Positions 4,567-11,548 of a DNA stretch of 64,000 bases are shown piece by piece; position 1 is the first letter of the stretch, and every line of letters begins with the position of its first letter. Source of the DNA: Nonomuraea sediminis (lineage in GTDB: Bacteria > Actinomycetota > Actinomycetes > Streptosporangiales > Streptosporangiaceae). The stretch spans positions 124,001-188,000 of the forward strand of contig NZ_JAHDTI010000005.1 of NCBI RefSeq assembly GCF_018531495.1. The letters run 5' to 3'. Made by a program: the position numbers and the translations under genes. A model generated the notes under the pieces. That model did not search any database. It saw only the letters and a list, made by a program, of their open reading frames with translations, and had not been told where the DNA came from.

Positions 4567-4684
4567 AAAGCTTACGCGCGCGCTGCTGGAGAATTCGTGG
4601 ACATGAGATTACTCGGAGGTGCGAGAGAATAGGGAAAACGATGCCATAGCTGACATCGAACGCCACGATGAAGGGATGGCGATC

Positions 4685-5083
4685 ATGTTTGCTGCGATTC
4701 GCTCAACAGGCGTATCCAGTCTGGCGATGGTGCTCGCATCGACCACCCTGACACTCACGATGGGCACGGGCACGAGCACGGCCGCCGTGGCGGCACCGCA
4801 AAGCGCGACGATGGCCAGCGCCGGAGTGACGCTGCACGACGGCCACATCTCGATGCGGCACGTCTTCCACCACGGCTCCGTCACCTTCACGATCAGGAAC
4901 GCGGGAACCGTTCCCCACGGCTTCGCCATCGCGGGGCGCGGAGTCAGCGCGAGGTCTGCCTTCCTCAACCCCGGCGGCTCGACCACGCTCACGGTCAAGC
5001 TGCACAGGGGCCGCTACTCGGTGTGGTGCCCGGTCGACGGTCACCGCTTCATGGGCATGTGGACGTGGATCGGCGTGCGGTAG
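4685..5083 (+). CDS. secreted cupredoxin-like copper-binding protein
   Basis: The 132-residue product has an N-terminal hydrophobic signal segment (about residues 8-40, ending near AAVAAP) and one cupredoxin domain. The likely type 1 copper ligands are visible in order: His in NAGTVPHGFAIAG, then Cys, His and Met in YSVWCPVDGHRFMGM. This is the plastocyanin/amicyanin-type arrangement of small electron carriers outside the membrane. AAGGGA 8 bp before the ATG at 4685 favours this start over the in-frame ATG at 4676 or upstream starts. No partner oxidase is adjacent; the multicopper oxidase at 38907 is the only other copper protein seen. Function in electron transfer or copper binding is inferred. 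Confidence 0.82.
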   Translation: MFAAIRSTGVSSLAMVLASTTLTLTMGTGTSTAAVAAPQSATMASAGVTLHDGHISMRHVFHHGSVTFTIRNAGTVPHGFAIAGRGVSARSAFLNPGGSTTLTVKLHRGRYSVWCPVDGHRFMGMWTWIGVR

Positions 5084-5096
5084 GGCGTCGTGCAGG

Positions 5097-6149
5097 CTAG
5101 ATGACCTGCCCGATCGTCCGGTCCACGATGAAACCGATGGACTCCAGCGAGTCCTTGTCCTGGAAGTTGTTCTGCCACACCACGATGAACCTGCGGCCTG
5201 AGTCGCCGTGCTCGACGATCGCGCCGTCCGAGGTCACCATCTGACCGGTCTTCAACGGGCCGAGGCCGATCTTCGAGTGGGTCACCGTGAAGGATCTGGG
5301 CGTCAGGGCTCGCCGGGTGAAGTCCATGTACGACGGATCATCGCCGACCGACGCGCTGGTGCCCAGCAATGCCAGCATGTCGTTCGAACCGGCCTGGTCG
5401 ACCAGGGTGCCGCTGAAGAGGTGCGCGTACAGGTTCGCCATGTCGAAGCAGGTCATCGCCTGGGCGACCATCCCGTCGTTGGCGCTGGGGATGCGCACCG
5501 CGGTCAGCGATTTGTTGAACGTGCCGGCGAGCCAGATCCCCGACTGCGCGGGAGGGAAGAAGAAACCGCCCGCCTTCAGCGCCCCGTTGATCCAGCTGTA
5601 GCCGAGCAGCCGGATGCACGCCGCCGCGGCGTCGTTGTCGCTGTTGATCATCATGCGGCGCAGGTTGGCCTGGAAGGCGCCGTTGAACTCGCAGGCCAGC
5701 CCGCCGTCGACCAGCGGGATGGTGGCGAAGATGCCCTCGTAGTTCGGCTGTCTCGGCACGCCGCTCAGGCCCGGCTCCGCGGCGATCGCGGGCACGGCGT
5801 CGCTGATCGGCTGGTCGAACTCGCTGTGCAGCAGGGCGAACAGTTCGCCCGGCGTGGACGATCCGGCCGCGAGGTTGTTGACGCTGCGCCGGAGTTCGAA
5901 CGCCGCGTACATGGCGGCGACCTTCAGCAGGCTGGCCGAGTAGAAGGTGTCGCCGAACCGATGTCCCGCGTGCTTGAAGTCCAGGGGTGAGGTCGTCTCG
6001 TCGATCGAGGCGATGGAGATCGCCACGCGCAGTGGGTGCTCGATGAGCGGGGACCGCAGCGCTTCCTCGATGGCGACTTCGAGAGCCGATCCCAGCGTGG
6101 GGTCGTCGCCCAGGAGCGTGGGATAAGGGTCGGGGAACGGCCCAGCCAT
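5097..6149 (-). CDS. serine beta-lactamase-like protein without signal peptide
   Basis: The 350-residue product carries the three active-site motifs of class A-type serine beta-lactamases and related penicillin-binding folds: SASLLK with Ser73 and Lys76, NSDN with Ser170-Asp171-Asn172, and LKTG at 299-302. A class A enzyme is normally exported and about 290 residues long. This one begins MAGPFPDPYPTLLG with no hydrophobic leader, so it appears cytoplasmic, and the spacing between the first two motifs is longer than usual because of a segment at about 95-160. It might act on a cytoplasmic ester or amide rather than on beta-lactams. It lies just downstream of the SARP regulator on the same strand (48 bp gap). 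Confidence 0.78.
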   Translation of the reverse strand: MAGPFPDPYPTLLGDDPTLGSALEVAIEEALRSPLIEHPLRVAISIASIDETTSPLDFKHAGHRFGDTFYSASLLKVAAMYAAFELRRSVNNLAAGSSTPGELFALLHSEFDQPISDAVPAIAAEPGLSGVPRQPNYEGIFATIPLVDGGLACEFNGAFQANLRRMMINSDNDAAAACIRLLGYSWINGALKAGGFFFPPAQSGIWLAGTFNKSLTAVRIPSANDGMVAQAMTCFDMANLYAHLFSGTLVDQAGSNDMLALLGTSASVGDDPSYMDFTRRALTPRSFTVTHSKIGLGPLKTGQMVTSDGAIVEHGDSGRRFIVVWQNNFQDKDSLESIGFIVDRTIGQVI

Positions 6150-6197: not shown

Positions 6198-8942
6198 TTA
6201 GTCAGCGACCAGCGACGCCCGGATGCGGTCCAGGCGGGGTGAGGTGATGTCGAGGCTGTCGTAGATGGCCAGCGACCGGCGCAGGCACTCCTGACCCTCG
6301 TCGGGTTCGCCGAGCTCCACCAGGGTCTCGCCGCGCGCCAGCAGGGCGCGGGCCTCGTTGACCTGGTCCTCGATCTCGACCGACAACGCCAGTGCCTCGT
6401 CCGCCTGGGCGAGGGCCTGCTCCAGCTGCCCCGTCCGCAGATGCGCGTCGGCCAGCAGTACCAGGTTCTCGACGCTCATCTGCACGAGCCCCTGGGCGCG
6501 GTAGGCCTCCAGTGCCTCCGTGTAGCACGGGATGGCCTCGGCGTGCCGGCCGAGCGCCGTCAGCACGTCGCCCATGATCGAGACCTCGAAGTCCACGGTC
6601 TTGACGGGCCTGACGAGGCCGATGACGGCCGTGATGTGGACGAGGGCTTCCTCCGCCTGGTCGGTGCGGAGCTGGATCTGGGCGAGGTTCGTCAGTGCCC
6701 GCGCCTCGGCGGCCGGATCGCCTGACTCGCGCCCGGCCCGCACCGCCGCCAGCGCGACCTCGACGGCGGCCGGATAGTCGAGGCGGGTGGCGATGACCAG
6801 GGCGAGCAGTGTGGTGATCTCGCACAGCAGGATCCTGTCGCGGGCGTGGCCTGCGGCCGCGCGCAGCAACGGCTCGGCCTGGGCGTGCTCGCCGACCGTG
6901 AACAACACGCTGCCCAGGACGCAGACCGCGCCCGCGGCGGTCTCGAGGTCGCCGCGCGCCTCCGCGTCCTGTTTGACGGCCTCGGCGGCCTTGCGGAACT
7001 CCCGTTGGTGCACCATCCGGTCGACGCGCTCCTCGAGCAGCCGCAGCAGGCGTACTGCCACGGCGTCGCCGCGCTGCGCCACCACGGGCCAGATCCCCGG
7101 CAGCTCGGCGGCCAGCCAGCGGTCGGCCTCAGGGCTCCCCGCGAAGCGCAGGCCGCCGCCCTCGCGCGGACCCGCCCAGTACAGGGCCAGCCGCCACACC
7201 TCGCAGGCGCTCTGCAGGGTGGCGAGCAGGTGGACCACCAGCCGGTCCAGCGCCTGCTCGCGTTCCCCGTCGGCCTGCTGGCGCGCGTACACCTTGAGCA
7301 GGTCGTGGAAGCGGTAGCGGCCGGCCGAGGGGGACTCGAGCAGGCTGAGGTCGACCAGGTTCTCCAGCAGTTCTTCCGCCTCGTCCTCGTCGACGCCGAG
7401 GAGCGCGGCGGCCGACGACAGTGACAGGTCCTCGCTGTCGGGCACGGCGGCCAGCCGGAACGCGCGGGCGCAGCCGGGGTCGAGCTGGCGGTAGGACAGC
7501 TCGAAGCTGCTCTCCACGGCCAGGTCGCGCACGCGCAGCGCCCTGAGCCGGTCGCGCTCGCCGGCCAGCCTGTCCACCATCGACGTGATCGTCCACGTGC
7601 CGCGCGAGGCCAGCCGGGCTCCCGCGACGCGTACGGCCAGCGGCAGGTGACCGCACAGCTCGGCCAGCCGCCGCGCCTGCTCGGGCTCGGCCGCCACCCG
7701 CTCGGGACCGATGATCTTCGCGAGCAGCGTGACCGCCTCGTCCCCCTCGAGGACGGTCAGGTCGAGCACCCGCGCGCCGTCCAGCCCGAGCAGCCTGACC
7801 CGGCTGGTCACCAGCACGCCGCAGCCGTGGTCGCCGGGCACCAGCGGCGACACCTGCGCGGCGTCGGCCGCGTTGTCGAGCACGACGAGCATCCGCCTGC
7901 CGGACACGATCGACCGGAACAGCGCCGACCGTTCCTGCGGCTCGTCGGGGATCTCCTGATCGCCGACACCCAGCGCACGCAGGAACCCGGCCAGCGCCGC
8001 CACGGGATCCGCCGGGGCGGGCCCGGCCCCCTGCAGGTCCACATACAGCTGCCCGCCGGGGAAATCCCCCCGTACGGCGTGCGCGACATGCAGGGCGAGC
8101 GTCGTCTTCCCGACCCCGCCGATGCCCGAGACCACCGACACGACCGGGGCACGCTCCCGCTCTGTCCGCAGCTCCCCCACCAGCTCGTCCACCTGGGCGG
8201 CGCGGCCGGTGAAGTCGCCGATGTCCGGCGGGAGCTGCGCGGGGACGGGGGCCTGTGGACCGGCCGACAGGCCGCTGTGCAACCTCGCCAGCTCGGGCCC
8301 GGGATCGATGCCCAGCTCCTCGGCCAGGAGCTGCTGGAACTCCGCGTAGACGGCCTGCGCCTCCGCGTGCCGCCCGGCGGCGGCGTAGGCCCGCATGAGC
8401 AGGCCGCAGGGCCGCTCCCGCAGCGGGTGGCGGGCCACGACGTCCAGCAGCTCGGGTACGAGGCCGCCTGCCGCGCCCGCGGCCAGCTCCTGCTCGCAGG
8501 CCGCCTCGATCGCGGTCAGGCGGAGGTCGTCGAGCTGGGTGCGGGTGGCCTGGCCGTACCGGCCGGTCAGCTCGGGGACGGGGTCGCCGCGCCACAGCGC
8601 GAGCGCGCGGCGGTGCCGCCCCTGGGCGGTCAGTGTGTGGAACTCGGCGAGGTCGGTGCCGACGCCGCGCAGCGCGTAGCCGCCGCCGAGCCGGACGAGG
8701 TGCTCGTGGCCGAGGACCCCGCGCAGGCGCGAGACGTAGCTGCGGACCATCGGGGTGACCGTCGGCGCGGGATCGTCCTCCCACAGCGCGTCGATCAGCC
8801 GGTCAAGGCTGACGGGCCGCCCCTCGTCCAGGGCGAGGCAGGCCAGCAGGGCCCGCTGCCTGGGTGAACCCAGGTCCAGCGCCGTGCCGTCCCGCCAGGC
8901 CCGCACCGGCCCGAGAACCCCTACCCGCACCCCCGACGTCAT
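6198..8942 (-). CDS. SARP/AfsR-type transcriptional activator (BTAD, NB-ARC ATPase, TPR)
   Basis: The 914-residue regulator has an OmpR-like winged helix at about 5-95 (VRVGVLGPVRAWRDG to LVRLGGGYALRG) and a bacterial transcriptional activator domain at about 98-225 (ending LGIDPGPELARLH). An NB-ARC/STAND ATPase follows, with P-loop GIGGVGKT at 273-280 and a Walker B-like RMLVVLDNAAD. The last 300 residues are TPR helices. AfsR-type proteins bind direct repeats near promoters and switch with nucleotide or partner binding. A TAACCT box 6 bp before the ATG suggests a leaderless mRNA. It is divergent from the unknown pair at 9090 and 10418, its most likely target; no antibiotic cluster is next to it. 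Confidence 0.92.
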   Translation of the reverse strand: MTSGVRVGVLGPVRAWRDGTALDLGSPRQRALLACLALDEGRPVSLDRLIDALWEDDPAPTVTPMVRSYVSRLRGVLGHEHLVRLGGGYALRGVGTDLAEFHTLTAQGRHRRALALWRGDPVPELTGRYGQATRTQLDDLRLTAIEAACEQELAAGAAGGLVPELLDVVARHPLRERPCGLLMRAYAAAGRHAEAQAVYAEFQQLLAEELGIDPGPELARLHSGLSAGPQAPVPAQLPPDIGDFTGRAAQVDELVGELRTERERAPVVSVVSGIGGVGKTTLALHVAHAVRGDFPGGQLYVDLQGAGPAPADPVAALAGFLRALGVGDQEIPDEPQERSALFRSIVSGRRMLVVLDNAADAAQVSPLVPGDHGCGVLVTSRVRLLGLDGARVLDLTVLEGDEAVTLLAKIIGPERVAAEPEQARRLAELCGHLPLAVRVAGARLASRGTWTITSMVDRLAGERDRLRALRVRDLAVESSFELSYRQLDPGCARAFRLAAVPDSEDLSLSSAAALLGVDEDEAEELLENLVDLSLLESPSAGRYRFHDLLKVYARQQADGEREQALDRLVVHLLATLQSACEVWRLALYWAGPREGGGLRFAGSPEADRWLAAELPGIWPVVAQRGDAVAVRLLRLLEERVDRMVHQREFRKAAEAVKQDAEARGDLETAAGAVCVLGSVLFTVGEHAQAEPLLRAAAGHARDRILLCEITTLLALVIATRLDYPAAVEVALAAVRAGRESGDPAAEARALTNLAQIQLRTDQAEEALVHITAVIGLVRPVKTVDFEVSIMGDVLTALGRHAEAIPCYTEALEAYRAQGLVQMSVENLVLLADAHLRTGQLEQALAQADEALALSVEIEDQVNEARALLARGETLVELGEPDEGQECLRRSLAIYDSLDITSPRLDRIRASLVAD

Positions 8943-8948
8943 CGGGAC

Positions 8949-8980
8949 AGGTTAACGGCAATGAGTAGGGGGTTACTCAT
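8949..8980 (-). promoter_or_regulatory. leaderless -10 box and inverted repeat upstream of the SARP gene
   Basis: On the minus strand TAACCT (8949-8954) lies 6 bp before the ATG at 8942, a spacing typical of leaderless transcripts. Immediately upstream is a perfect inverted repeat ATGAGTA-N6-TACTCAT (8961-8967 and 8974-8980) in the place of the spacer and -35 region. It could let the regulator or another protein control both divergent directions. A second inverted pair, CGGACGGC (9022-9029) and GCCGTCCG (9054-9061), lies nearer to the gene at 9090. Confidence 0.5.
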
Positions 8981-9089
8981 GCGGCCGGCCCGGGCTGGGC
9001 GCAGGCTCGGGAGCGTCGGGGCGGACGGCTTGAGGGGCTTGGAACGTGCCAGGGCCGTCCGTCCCGTGACTCTTCAGAGGAGGTAGAGC

Positions 9090-10433
9090 ATGTCCCTCGA
9101 CGAACGCATCGCACTCACCCTCTACGACCGCATGTTCAAGGTGATCAGCGGAGAACCCGACTCCGGCATGGCCTCGGCCTTCGAGAGCGCCAACACCACG
9201 TTCGTGATGGCCCAGCGCGGCCTGGTGCTCAACGCCGCCGACTACCGCAACCCGTGGTCGCCCGGCAACACCGACGGCAGCATCCAGGCGGCCTTCAACA
9301 TCGCCTCACTGGTCGACGAGATCCCCGCGGTGAGCCACATGTACGCGCCGACCGGGCGGTCGGTGTCGGACGTGTACTCGAAGATGGTCAACACCGTGCA
9401 CGTCACGGAGCCGCCGCCCTCCCCCGAGATCCAGCACCAGCGGGACGAGCTGAACAAGGTGCTCGTCGAGCAGGTCAAGGACGACGAGGGCCGGACCGTG
9501 GAGCGCCCGACGGCGCTGGCGGACAACGAGCAGCGGGCCTTCAACAACTACCAGGACGCCTACATGGCCTACGTGGGGCAGTGGGCCGCCGCGCAGGCCG
9601 ACGAGAACCTGAAGCGGGTCTGGCCGATCGTCGGCGCCCAGGCGCTCCAGCGGCCCAGGCGGGCCTTCGCCGACTGGGGCGCCGCCGGCCGGGACCAGAT
9701 CAGGTCCACCAAGGCGCAGCTGGCCACGCTCAACGAGGGGCAGGTGGCCAGGGCCTTCGCCGACGCCCAGTTCCGCCTGCAGGCCTTCGAGCTGGTCAAC
9801 GTGCTCCAGGAGACCTTCTTCAGGACCACGATCGCGCCATCGGACTGGGCGGGCGCCGACGCGAGCACCTGGCCGACGTTCTCCTTCTCGGAGTCGACGC
9901 TGAACAACTCCTTCTCCTCCGAGGCCACCTCGTGGGGCGCGTCCGCCCAGGTGAACGTCGGACTGTGGAGCTTCGGCGGCGGCGTGTCGTCCTCCGACAG
10001 CCGCGTGAGCATGAGCGCCGACACCACCGACATCGGCCTGTCCTTCAAGTGGCGCATCTGCCCCATCTACCGCAAGTGGATGGACGCCAGCCTGTTCAAG
10101 CTGCCGAACTGGGACCTGGGATCGCTGTCGGGGGCCGGGGGCATCTCAGGCGGCGCCGACCCGCTGATGCCGCTCATCCCGCAGGCGCTGGTGATCGTCC
10201 GAGACGTGCACGTGACGGCGAACTGGTCACACCAGGACTCCGAGCGCATCGACTCGGCGATCAGCGGCTCGGCCAGCGTCGGCTACGGGCCGTTCGCCGT
10301 CGCGGGCAACTACAGCCACAGCTCGACCAGCGACAAGTTCAACGCGCACCGCACCGGCCAGGGCTTCGAGATCCCCGACATCCAGCTGCTCGGCTTCGTC
10401 TGCACGAAGGTGCCGCCGTGCCCTCCCAAGTAG
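9090..10433 (+). CDS. protein of unknown function with paired amphipathic beta segments (upstream partner)
   Basis: Not recognised. The ATG follows a strong AGAGGAGG. The 447-residue product is soluble by composition, without signal peptide or membrane helix. Residues 1-220 look mainly helical (for example LADNEQRAFNNYQDAYMAYV). Residues about 275-325 and 395-425 are rich in Ser, Gly and alternating hydrophobics, as in WGASAQVNVGLWSFGGGVSS and SGSASVGYGPFAVAGNYSHS, patterns that can form amphipathic beta-hairpins. The C-terminal part shares motifs with the next gene: LSFKWRICPIYRKW, then ANWSHQD and GYGPFAVAG, and a Cys-containing PPCP end. The next gene overlaps it by 16 bp. A pore-forming or self-assembling role is only a guess from these strands. 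Confidence 0.8.
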   Translation: MSLDERIALTLYDRMFKVISGEPDSGMASAFESANTTFVMAQRGLVLNAADYRNPWSPGNTDGSIQAAFNIASLVDEIPAVSHMYAPTGRSVSDVYSKMVNTVHVTEPPPSPEIQHQRDELNKVLVEQVKDDEGRTVERPTALADNEQRAFNNYQDAYMAYVGQWAAAQADENLKRVWPIVGAQALQRPRRAFADWGAAGRDQIRSTKAQLATLNEGQVARAFADAQFRLQAFELVNVLQETFFRTTIAPSDWAGADASTWPTFSFSESTLNNSFSSEATSWGASAQVNVGLWSFGGGVSSSDSRVSMSADTTDIGLSFKWRICPIYRKWMDASLFKLPNWDLGSLSGAGGISGGADPLMPLIPQALVIVRDVHVTANWSHQDSERIDSAISGSASVGYGPFAVAGNYSHSSTSDKFNAHRTGQGFEIPDIQLLGFVCTKVPPCPPK

Positions 10434-11548
10434 CGGCCGGCGCCCAGCTGTACGGTCACCTCGCCCAGCTGCTGGCTCCCGCCGACAGCCTCGCGGGCTC
10501 CTCCTCGATGGTGATCCTCGAACCCGCCGGGAAGGACGTGGGGGCCATGGCCTCCCTGGCGGGTCCCGCGGCCGCCGAGGCGCTGGCGGACCTCGCCAAC
10601 GCGATTCCCGCCGTCGCCTCCTCGTTCCTGGACACCGGGAGCTTCTACGACGACATCTGGAACTTCGTGCTCACCAGCGCGCTGCCGACAGGGCCGGTCG
10701 ACGACCCGGTCCGCGTCACCGTGGCCCGGGTCATCGCCGACAACCGCGCCAGTTTCGAGCTCATGACCCTGGCCCGGCTCGACCTGCCCGGTGACCTGTA
10801 CCACCCGGTGCGGGCCGCCCCCGCGGACTGGCTCGGCCACGACGGATGGAGCTCGGCGTCGTTCCGCGTCGGCGGCGAGGACGCCGATCCCCCGCCGCCG
10901 CCCTCGCCGGGCCTGTTCATCCCGGAGGACATCCCCGACCTGGTCTGGCGGGAGATCGAGCCGCTCGGCCCGGTGCCCATCGATCCGCTGATCAAGCCGC
11001 CGGGGATCTTCGTCCCGATCCGCGAGCAGCCGCCGCTGGAGGATCCGCGCGTGATCAAGCTGCTTGACAGGATACGGGCCAGGGAACCGCTCCTGCCGTC
11101 CGGCGGGCTGGTCTGGCGGGACGTCTTCACGGTGTCGCGCGCCGCCGAGGCGAGCGGGAAGGCGAGCCAGACCACGTCCAGGTTCCGGCTGTCGTTCGAC
11201 TACCGGGTGGTGGGCCTGCGCAGGCCTTGGCTGGAGCCTCAGCTGTGCCACCTGAGCGGGTGGATCATCCCCGGGCTGCCCGCGCACGGCCTGTCCACCG
11301 GGCTGCTCACGGACAACAAGGGGCTGCTGCCCGCCCTCACCACCCGGATGCTCGCGGTCCGCAACCTGGTGGTCGAGGCCGATTGGAGCGACGCCGACCG
11401 CCAGAAGGCCGCGAGCGGCGCCACGGTCTCCTTCGGCCCGTTCAAGGTGTCGGGCGAGGCCGCCTTCGACGGCACCCGCCTGACGCGCCCCGACCCGCAG
11501 GTCGTCGCCTGGCTGGCCACCGTCGTCCCGGCCTGCCCGGGCCCGTGA
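10418..11548 (+). CDS. protein of unknown function sharing a C-terminal domain with its upstream neighbour
   Basis: Not recognised. The GTG at 10418 lies inside the end of the previous gene (16-bp overlap) with GAAGG about 8 bp before, so translation is probably coupled. The 376-residue product has a helical N-terminal half (to about 130) and a proline-rich linker at about 150-215 (for example DADPPPPPSPGLFIPEDIPD). Its C-terminal domain matches the neighbour in order: LSFDYRVVGLRRPW, the W of CHLSGW, LLPALTTRMLAVRNLVVEAD, GATVSFGPFKVSGE and VVPACPG. No signal peptide or membrane helix is present. The two products probably form one complex or are alternative subunits; regulation by the divergent SARP protein is inferred from position. 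Confidence 0.8.
   Translation: MPSQVAAGAQLYGHLAQLLAPADSLAGSSSMVILEPAGKDVGAMASLAGPAAAEALADLANAIPAVASSFLDTGSFYDDIWNFVLTSALPTGPVDDPVRVTVARVIADNRASFELMTLARLDLPGDLYHPVRAAPADWLGHDGWSSASFRVGGEDADPPPPPSPGLFIPEDIPDLVWREIEPLGPVPIDPLIKPPGIFVPIREQPPLEDPRVIKLLDRIRAREPLLPSGGLVWRDVFTVSRAAEASGKASQTTSRFRLSFDYRVVGLRRPWLEPQLCHLSGWIIPGLPAHGLSTGLLTDNKGLLPALTTRMLAVRNLVVEADWSDADRQKAASGATVSFGPFKVSGEAAFDGTRLTRPDPQVVAWLATVVPACPGP

What the first reader, a model, noticed from the sequence alone, without database searches (positions are those of the whole stretch)
6198..11548. SARP regulator facing a coupled pair of unknown proteins with a shared C-terminal domain
The products at 9090 and 10418 share an ordered set of motifs in their last 120-150 residues: LSFxYR/WR-type, RxW, a long strand before xADWS/ANWSH, GPFxVxG and a PxCP end. 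Their N-terminal halves differ. They overlap by 16 bp and face a SARP/AfsR protein with an inverted repeat in its leaderless promoter. Two linked, diverged copies of one domain fused to different N-termini suggest a two-subunit assembly; the Ser/Gly-rich alternating strands hint at a hairpin-forming, perhaps membrane-inserting, part. I know no described family with this pairing.
Basis: partly seen in the sequence, partly recalled or inferred. Interest (0 to 1): 0.72.

Follow-up and report, generated by a model that had tools for sequence, protein, structure and literature searches.

The report
Paired paralogues, probable two-part pore
Two neighbouring genes in a soil actinomycete encode full-length sister proteins of an unnamed, patchily spread family that probably work together, most likely as a two-part membrane pore tied to the bacterial cell wall.

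Summary
The products at 9090-10433 (P1) and 10418-11548 (P2) share a real C-terminal domain and overlap by 16 bp. Their N-terminal halves are homologous too, so they are diverged full-length paralogues. The pair recurs: 15 of 17 loci with a P1-type gene have a P2-type gene beside it, in scattered actinomycetes (10 of 394 genomes of the class) and on alphaproteobacterial plasmids, and the partners diverge in step. The facing SARP is not part of the module. No library tested names the family. P1 carries two Gly/Ser-rich stretches whose aligned columns alternate as membrane beta-hairpins would; P2 lacks the first and keeps a short form of the second in 10 of 15. Wall-binding or wall-cutting domains were found in or beside the pair in 8 of 17 loci, well above chance in the 12 genomes counted, and proteases in 2. 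Best reading: a two-component pore, P1 inserting, P2 assembling or anchoring. The pore is inferred: both AlphaFold models were unusable, no fold match was significant, a single-sequence test of the hairpins failed, and membership of MACPF, CDC or gasdermin families is not shown.

The parts
6198..8942 (-). SARP/AfsR-type regulator (winged helix, BTAD, NB-ARC, TPR); divergent neighbour, not conserved with the pair
   Evidence: Pfam; relatives
8961..8980 (.). perfect inverted repeat ATGAGTA-N6-TACTCAT, 18 bp from the SARP start codon; one of six such sites (at most 1 mismatch) in this genome
9090..10433 (+). P1, 447 aa, proposed membrane-inserting subunit
9090..9824 (+). P1 N-terminal region (residues 1-245), mostly helical in a low-confidence model, homologous to the N-terminal region of P2
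9921..10004 (+). P1 candidate beta-hairpin 1 (residues 278-305; tip around Leu292-Trp293), absent from P2
10035..10430 (+). P1 shared C-terminal domain (residues 316-447)
10260..10325 (+). P1 candidate beta-hairpin 2 (residues 391-412; tip around Gly400-Pro401-Phe402); P2 has a shorter form with the same Gly-Pro-Phe
10418..11548 (+). P2, 376 aa, GTG start overlapping the end of P1 by 16 bp; paralogue without hairpin 1, proposed assembly or anchoring subunit
11183..11545 (+). P2 shared C-terminal domain (residues 256-376)

Best explanation
P1 and P2 are the two co-expressed subunits of a membrane pore. Shown: they are full-length paralogues, tandem and co-inherited; P1 carries two conserved stretches whose aligned columns alternate like beta-hairpins; P2 lacks the first stretch and has the second shortened (10 of 15 keep its Gly-Pro-Phe core) or replaced (5 of 15). 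Inferred: the two proteins assemble; P1 supplies two beta-hairpins per subunit to a barrel through the membrane, in the order strand - hairpin - two strands - hairpin - strand that MACPF, CDC and gasdermin pores use (order recalled; two hairpins per protomer from PMC11952106); P2 keeps the assembly surfaces, inserts less or not at all, and starts or anchors the assembly. In many loci the anchor would be a peptidoglycan-binding module on P2 or on a neighbouring wall enzyme, so that membrane damage is coupled to wall damage. Most of these proteins and neighbouring wall enzymes show no convincing signal peptide, so a cell-lysing use from inside (holin-endolysin or bacterial-gasdermin style) and release to attack neighbours (bacteriocin or CDCL style) are about equally likely; I cannot separate them.
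For: Full-length paralogy: hhalign N-terminal halves E 2.3e-17, C-terminal parts E 8.6e-34; 15 of 15 column-shuffled controls below 0.5%. P2 adjacent in 15 of 17 loci; gaps -32 to +81 bp in the 13 measured. Co-divergence r 0.942 over 15 pairs, 0 of 20000 permutations as high, highest 0.674. Hairpin columns: the observed alternation is the best possible arrangement for strand 1a (p 0.0022) and 1b (p 0.0079), 12 of 16 P1s; p 0.029 and 0.032 for 2a and 2b, 13 of 16 P1s. G/S/T/N/A/H fraction of the hairpin-1 slot 0.44-0.74 in 14 P1s, 0.28-0.48 in 13 P2s, slightly overlapping. Wall domains in or beside the pair in 8 of 17 loci. In the 12 genomes of the G series that hold the family, 6 of 111 PG_binding_1 and LysM sites lie at the pair, about 0.24 expected, Poisson 2e-7; 5 of 12 genomes have one there, p 2e-6. 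Proteases beside the pair in 2 of 17: subtilase plus PG_binding_1, and Trypsin_2. P1 is more conserved than P2 in 20 of 20 comparable pairs, as if P2 faced a varying partner or target.
Against: No structure supports it: AlphaFold mean pLDDT 39.7 for P1 and 47.7 for its C-terminal part; Foldseek against the PDB gave 0 matches at E up to 0.001 (a bacterial gasdermin ranks 30th at E 5.9, which means nothing). No sequence match to MACPF, CDC or gasdermin and none of weight to solved proteins. A single-sequence amphipathicity test failed: 2 of 32 P1 segments reached 0.05 or less, and 2 of 30 P2 segments did as well, so it does not tell P1 from P2. The column test came afterwards, with my own scale, strand limits and hand-written tip patterns; one column more in strand 2a only flips the parity. 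Two of 17 loci lack a P2, one with a 959-aa single form. In 9 of 17 loci, the window included, no wall domain was found (not every neighbour was scanned), and the four genomes added last to the count have none at the pair. No immunity gene was recognised. The S. meliloti proteins have signal peptides, unlike the rest.
Confidence: 0.47

Rival explanations
1. A cell-wall-associated two-subunit structure (adhesive, fibre or surface layer component) that does not make pores; the Gly/Ser-rich strands are stacking strands or surface loops.
For: Recurrent peptidoglycan-binding modules; weak Pfam resemblance to Fil_haemagg_2 in 1 of 10 members and to Porin_4 in 4 of 10; failed single-sequence hairpin test.
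Against: Two discrete hairpin-like slots, the first missing from P2; no convincing signal peptide in most members; rare and patchy.
Confidence: 0.22
2. The pair is an antibacterial effector set carried by mobile DNA that acts by another means than a pore, with wall hydrolases opening the wall of a neighbour.
For: Plasmid copies in four Alphaproteobacteria, likely exchange between phyla (60% identity between an actinobacterial and a Rhizobium P1), faster P2 divergence.
Against: No relative in the phage collection or in four viral-contig scans; no immunity gene recognised; no convincing signal peptides in Actinobacteria. Secretion systems were not searched for.
Confidence: 0.15
3. A regulated metabolic or stress protein complex under SARP control, unrelated to membranes.
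For: The facing SARP and the palindrome.
Against: The SARP is not conserved with the pair; the palindrome stands near other starts; in the cross-comparison of 14 neighbourhoods few neighbour genes were shared apart from the pair itself and wall-domain genes.
Confidence: 0.1

Closest known systems
CDC-like two-component toxins of Bacteroidota (CDCL-S/CDCL-L; PMC11169675: abstract, section 6 and passages seen; PMC11952106: abstract and section 10 seen)
   Same: Adjacent paralogous genes, often of unequal length, sometimes three (as in S. meliloti here), some on mobile DNA; one subunit is the membrane platform and many copies of the other build the barrel with two hairpins each; protease activation (a protease was found beside the pair in 2 of 17 loci here).
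   Different: No match to PF01289 or PF01823 here; the CDCL pairs analysed carry lipoprotein signal peptides, most of these proteins carry none by a simple scan; no immunity lipoprotein seen; the roles of P1 and P2 are inferred only.
Bacterial gasdermins (PMC9612521: passages seen)
   Same: Proteins without export signals (recalled), proteases encoded beside them, endolysin-like lysozymes or amidases sometimes encoded nearby and likened there to holin-endolysin systems; two hairpins per protomer (PMC11952106).
   Different: No sequence match; a paralogous partner and peptidoglycan-binding fusions are not mentioned in the passages seen; gasdermins are shorter (recalled).
Phage holin-endolysin cassettes (recalled; compared with gasdermin operons in PMC9612521)
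   Same: Membrane damage coupled to wall hydrolases, some here without evident signal peptides.
   Different: No phage relatives found; no conserved transmembrane helix: a 19-residue hydropathy scan reaches 1.6 in 1 of 16 P1s and 4 of 15 P2s, the window's at 1.34 and 1.15.

Membership tests
MACPF/CDC superfamily | sequence match to PF01823 (MACPF) or PF01289 (Thiol_cytolysin) | tested here: not met
   no hit for P1 or P2 at E up to 1, nor for the 10 members of A1 at E up to 0.05; PF01823 also found in 0 of 246 genomes of the class
MACPF/CDC superfamily | twisted sheet with two transmembrane hairpins per protomer | tested here: inconclusive
   strand/hairpin order fits by sequence, single-sequence test failed, models too poor, no significant fold match
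MACPF/CDC superfamily | conserved di-glycine and helix-turn-helix motif | not tested
   named in PMC11952106 section 10; no reliable structural register here
Two-component CDCL toxins | adjacent paralogous gene pairs | tested here: met
   15 of 17 loci; paralogy
Two-component CDCL toxins | lipoprotein signal peptides | tested here: not met
   N-termini judged by eye and a hydrophobicity scan, not by a signal-peptide program; only the S. meliloti set looks exported; two other N-termini (G843 P1, G914 P2 with uncertain start) score high without looking like signals
Bacterial gasdermins | sequence match to gasdermin models | tested here: not met
   no such hit in Pfam or PADLOC at E up to 1 for P1 and P2; that these libraries hold gasdermin models is recalled
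Bacterial gasdermins | activating protease encoded next to it | tested here: inconclusive
   protease found beside the pair in 2 of 17 loci, none seen beside it in the window; not every neighbour was scanned
SARP/AfsR regulators (6198-8942) | winged helix plus BTAD, with NB-ARC and TPR in the large form | tested here: met
   BTAD 1.1e-30, Trans_reg_C 1.5e-8, NB-ARC 4.9e-15, TPR_12 6.4e-18

The most novel reading that the evidence does not exclude
P1/P2 define a previously undescribed superfamily of two-component giant-pore proteins of Actinobacteria and Alphaproteobacteria, in which a paralogue that lacks the first hairpin and in some lineages carries a peptidoglycan-binding module seeds or anchors a ring of two-hairpin subunits, and which works with signal-less wall hydrolases as a holin-endolysin-like lysis device.
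Probability: 0.25. Interest if true: 0.85.

Novelty: new variant of a known kind. Interest (0 to 1): 0.62.

Why it matters
If the reading is right, this is a new family of paired pore proteins outside Bacteroidota and outside the known MACPF, CDC and gasdermin sequences, with a built-in link to the cell wall. It would give some Actinobacteria (a class in which 0 of 246 sampled genomes have a Pfam-detectable MACPF) a two-subunit lysis or antagonism system, and a new case of how a paralogue that inserts less controls a beta-barrel pore. Even if it is not a pore, a co-evolving, horizontally moving paralogue pair with no name in four libraries and a strong tie to peptidoglycan modules deserves a structure.

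Tried and rejected
Known families: Pfam, NCBIfam, PADLOC and PHROGs gave nothing usable for P1 and P2 (P1 relatives). The Porin_4 hit (2e-5, below Pfam's cut-off) covers 46 residues around hairpin 2 and was not taken as homology. PDB sequence searches with two proteins and four profiles gave only chance-level hits, the best E 0.012 to a ribosomal protein on the helical part.

Structure: P1 with a 6-row alignment and its C-terminal part with 6 rows gave mean pLDDT 39.7 and 47.7; treated as unusable. Foldseek's best rows were coronavirus receptor-binding domains at E 0.28 and worse; ignored. The second aligner was not available.

Phage origin: no relative in phages or in four viral-contig scans.

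SARP-plus-pair as a unit: rejected, because relatives do not keep it. Palindrome as a private operator: rejected, because five more near-exact copies stand in the genome, some 3-34 bp from other ORF starts.

Single-sequence amphipathicity of the hairpins: not significant for P1, nor different from P2; the column test was made second.

A P1-P2 fusion in G146: rejected; the 959-aa protein has a P1-type N-terminus, a long insert and a P1-type C-terminus.

The first count of wall domains covered 8 of the 12 G-series genomes that hold the family and left out four without such a domain at the pair; those four were counted afterwards and the odds recomputed on all 12. The plasmid records and Streptomyces sp. 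t39 are not in that count.
Full report
What is there. The window holds a SARP/AfsR-type regulator (6198-8942, minus), a 147-bp gap with a perfect 7-bp inverted repeat (8961-8980), and two plus-strand genes, P1 (9090-10433, 447 aa) and P2 (10418-11548, 376 aa, GTG), that overlap by 16 bp. With P1 as query the genome (12.09 Mb) shows P1 itself, P2, and one place at E 0.89.

P1 residues 307-445 match P2 at E 6.5e-10, 34% identity. Profiles built from 14 P1-type and 13 P2-type proteins match over their C-terminal parts at E 8.6e-34 and over their N-terminal halves at E 2.3e-17; within one sub-group of four the N-terminal halves match at E 2.5e-10; 15 of 15 column-shuffled controls stay below 0.5% probability. 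P1 and P2 are therefore full-length paralogues. P2 has shed parts, above all the Gly/Ser-rich stretch before the shared domain.

Distribution. P1 finds relatives in 9 of 394 genomes of the class at E up to 0.001; a 10-row profile finds 10 of 394, 3 of 396 in a sample of the phylum and 4 of 250 in the family; the window's own genome counts in each, and the samples overlap. Named relatives are Microbispora siamensis (the same contig as G299) and Streptomyces sp. t39, and plasmids of Acuticoccus, Rhizobium, Sinorhizobium meliloti and Neorhizobium. No relative was found in phages or in four viral-contig scans. The spread looks horizontal: the Rhizobium P1 is 60% identical to that of actinomycete G026, and a protein of about 150 residues beside the pair is 63% identical between G843 (same family as the window's genome) and Neorhizobium.

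Pairing. I examined 17 loci with a P1-type gene: the window, 11 further G genomes (G299 read as L016), Streptomyces sp. t39, and four plasmids. 15 have a P2-type gene adjacent on the same strand; gaps measured in 13 range from -32 to +81 bp. In S. meliloti the order is P2, P1, third paralogue. The exceptions are Acuticoccus (an OmpA-family gene follows P1) and G146, with one 959-aa protein holding a P1-type start, a long insert and a P1-type end. Distances between P1s and between P2s correlate at r 0.942 over 15 pairs; 0 of 20000 permutations reach that, the highest being 0.674. This shows inheritance as a unit; it does not by itself prove contact. P1 is the slower partner in 20 of 20 pairs with P1 identity of 30% or more.

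Anatomy of P1. Two stretches flank the conserved Arg-x-Trp region of the shared domain: residues about 278-305 and about 391-412 in the window. Lined up on their tips (Gly-Leu-Trp/Phe-Ser and Gly-Tyr/Trp-Gly-Pro-Phe), the column means alternate hydrophobic and small-polar: strand 1a p 0.0022, 1b p 0.0079 (12 of 16 P1s; the other four, a sub-group with longer stretches, do not line up), 2a p 0.029 and 2b p 0.032 (13 of 16). These p values rank the observed arrangement among all ways of assigning the columns; the scale, the strand limits and the tip patterns were mine, and adding one column to 2a only flips the parity. A prior test on single sequences failed: 2 of 32 P1 segments and 2 of 30 P2 segments reached 0.05. 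The slot of hairpin 1 holds 44-74% G/S/T/N/A/H in 14 P1s against 28-48% in 13 P2s. In P2 the second slot is shorter but keeps Gly-Pro-Phe in 10 of 15, or is filled with other material, such as a long linker (L018, L020) or an insert that holds cysteines (L043). The order strand, hairpin, two strands, hairpin, strand is that of MACPF, CDC and gasdermin pores as I recall it; two hairpins per subunit is stated in PMC11952106, section 10. I regard this as a resemblance, not a proof.

Surroundings of relatives. Peptidoglycan-linked domains were found in or beside the pair in 8 of 17 loci: an SLT/PG_binding_1 gene directly before P1 (L016), SH3_3 at the end of P2 (L017), a subtilase with PG_binding_1 downstream (L018), a PG_binding_1/Phage_lysozyme2 gene directly before P1 and LysM at the end of P2 (L019), a GH25 gene directly after P2 (L020), LysM in the second piece of the interrupted P2 (L021), PG_binding_1 at the end of P2 (L023), an OmpA-family gene after P1 (L025). 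That SH3_3 and OmpA domains bind the wall is recalled. Neighbours were scanned by choice, not all, so 8 is a lower bound. To see whether this is chance, PG_binding_1 and LysM sites were counted in all 12 G genomes that hold the family: 111 sites, six of them at the pair, in 5 of 12 genomes. With a 13-kb zone per genome about 0.24 are expected (Poisson 2e-7; 5 of 12 genomes, p 2e-6). The zone width was my choice, and the sites at the pair were known before the count. A protease stands beside the pair in two loci (L018 subtilase, L022 Trypsin_2). Apart from S. meliloti, the P1s, P2s and these wall enzymes show no convincing signal peptide to the eye or a simple scan (the OmpA-family gene of L025 does); two other N-termini score high in that scan (G843 P1, G914 P2). 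There is no conserved transmembrane helix, although a 19-residue hydropathy scan reaches 1.6 in 1 of 16 P1s and 4 of 15 P2s.

Regulation. The SARP is ordinary and not part of a conserved unit. Among the ORFs of 13 other loci only one matches it, in Microbispora: an NB-ARC/TPR protein, 36% identical over 687 residues and without a BTAD hit. Neorhizobium has a BTAD-like regulator scoring below Pfam's cut-off. The palindrome has five more copies at one mismatch in the genome, 0 in the reversed control, some within 3-34 bp of other ORF starts.

Mechanism. I judge a two-component pore most likely (0.47, lowered from 0.5 when I saw that most P2s keep the core of hairpin 2): P1 inserts two hairpins, P2 inserts less or not and seeds or anchors, and wall modules couple it to the wall. 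The published comparison is close in logic: CDCL pairs are adjacent paralogues, the long one a membrane platform that recruits many short ones, both protease-activated (PMC11169675: abstract, section 6, passages); some bacterial gasdermin operons carry endolysin-like genes and have been likened to holin-endolysin systems (PMC9612521, passages). Whether the target is the cell itself or a neighbour cannot be told: lack of signals and the lysozyme neighbours speak for the first, plasmids and fast P2 change for the second.

Limits. There is no usable structure. No family, PDB or fold search gave a relative of known function. Two literature searches aimed at the family itself: by six accession numbers, 0 papers, and by topic, three papers of which only the titles and the start of the abstracts were seen. 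Three more searches looked for comparison systems. That is not proof that the family is undescribed. The N-terminus of the G122 P1 may be cut by its contig end, the L024 contig is only 6 kb, and the L021 P2 is used only up to its interruption.

Noticed in passing
window 8961-8980; L050-L054: The palindrome ATGAGTA-N6-TACTCAT has five more copies (1 mismatch) in the genome against 0 for the reversed control, most with a run of G or C in the spacer and some close to the starts of unrelated ORFs: perhaps a genome-wide promoter element.
   Followed up: partly
L044:9738-10205 and L028:4123-4596: A protein of about 150 residues and unknown family beside the pair is 63% identical between an actinomycete and a Neorhizobium plasmid, more conserved than P1 or P2 there; a candidate third component or immunity protein.
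   Followed up: partly
L027:2817-6790: An S. meliloti plasmid carries three tandem paralogues with signal peptides, and two TIR-domain genes lie about 4 kb on.
   Followed up: partly
L048:5397-8273: A 959-aa single-gene form with a P1-type start and end and a long insert; a 131-aa protein without a Pfam hit that by eye resembles a small amidase lies 0.5 kb on.
   Followed up: partly
window 5097-6149: Beta-lactamase-type serine hydrolase domain (Beta-lactamase2, 2.4e-9) without an evident signal peptide, next to the SARP.
   Followed up: no
window 4619-5083: Small protein that by eye looks like an exported cupredoxin.
   Followed up: no
L021:6852-8564: The P2 gene of G129 is split into two frames, with LysM in the second; real break or sequencing error not decided, and left as it is.
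   Followed up: no
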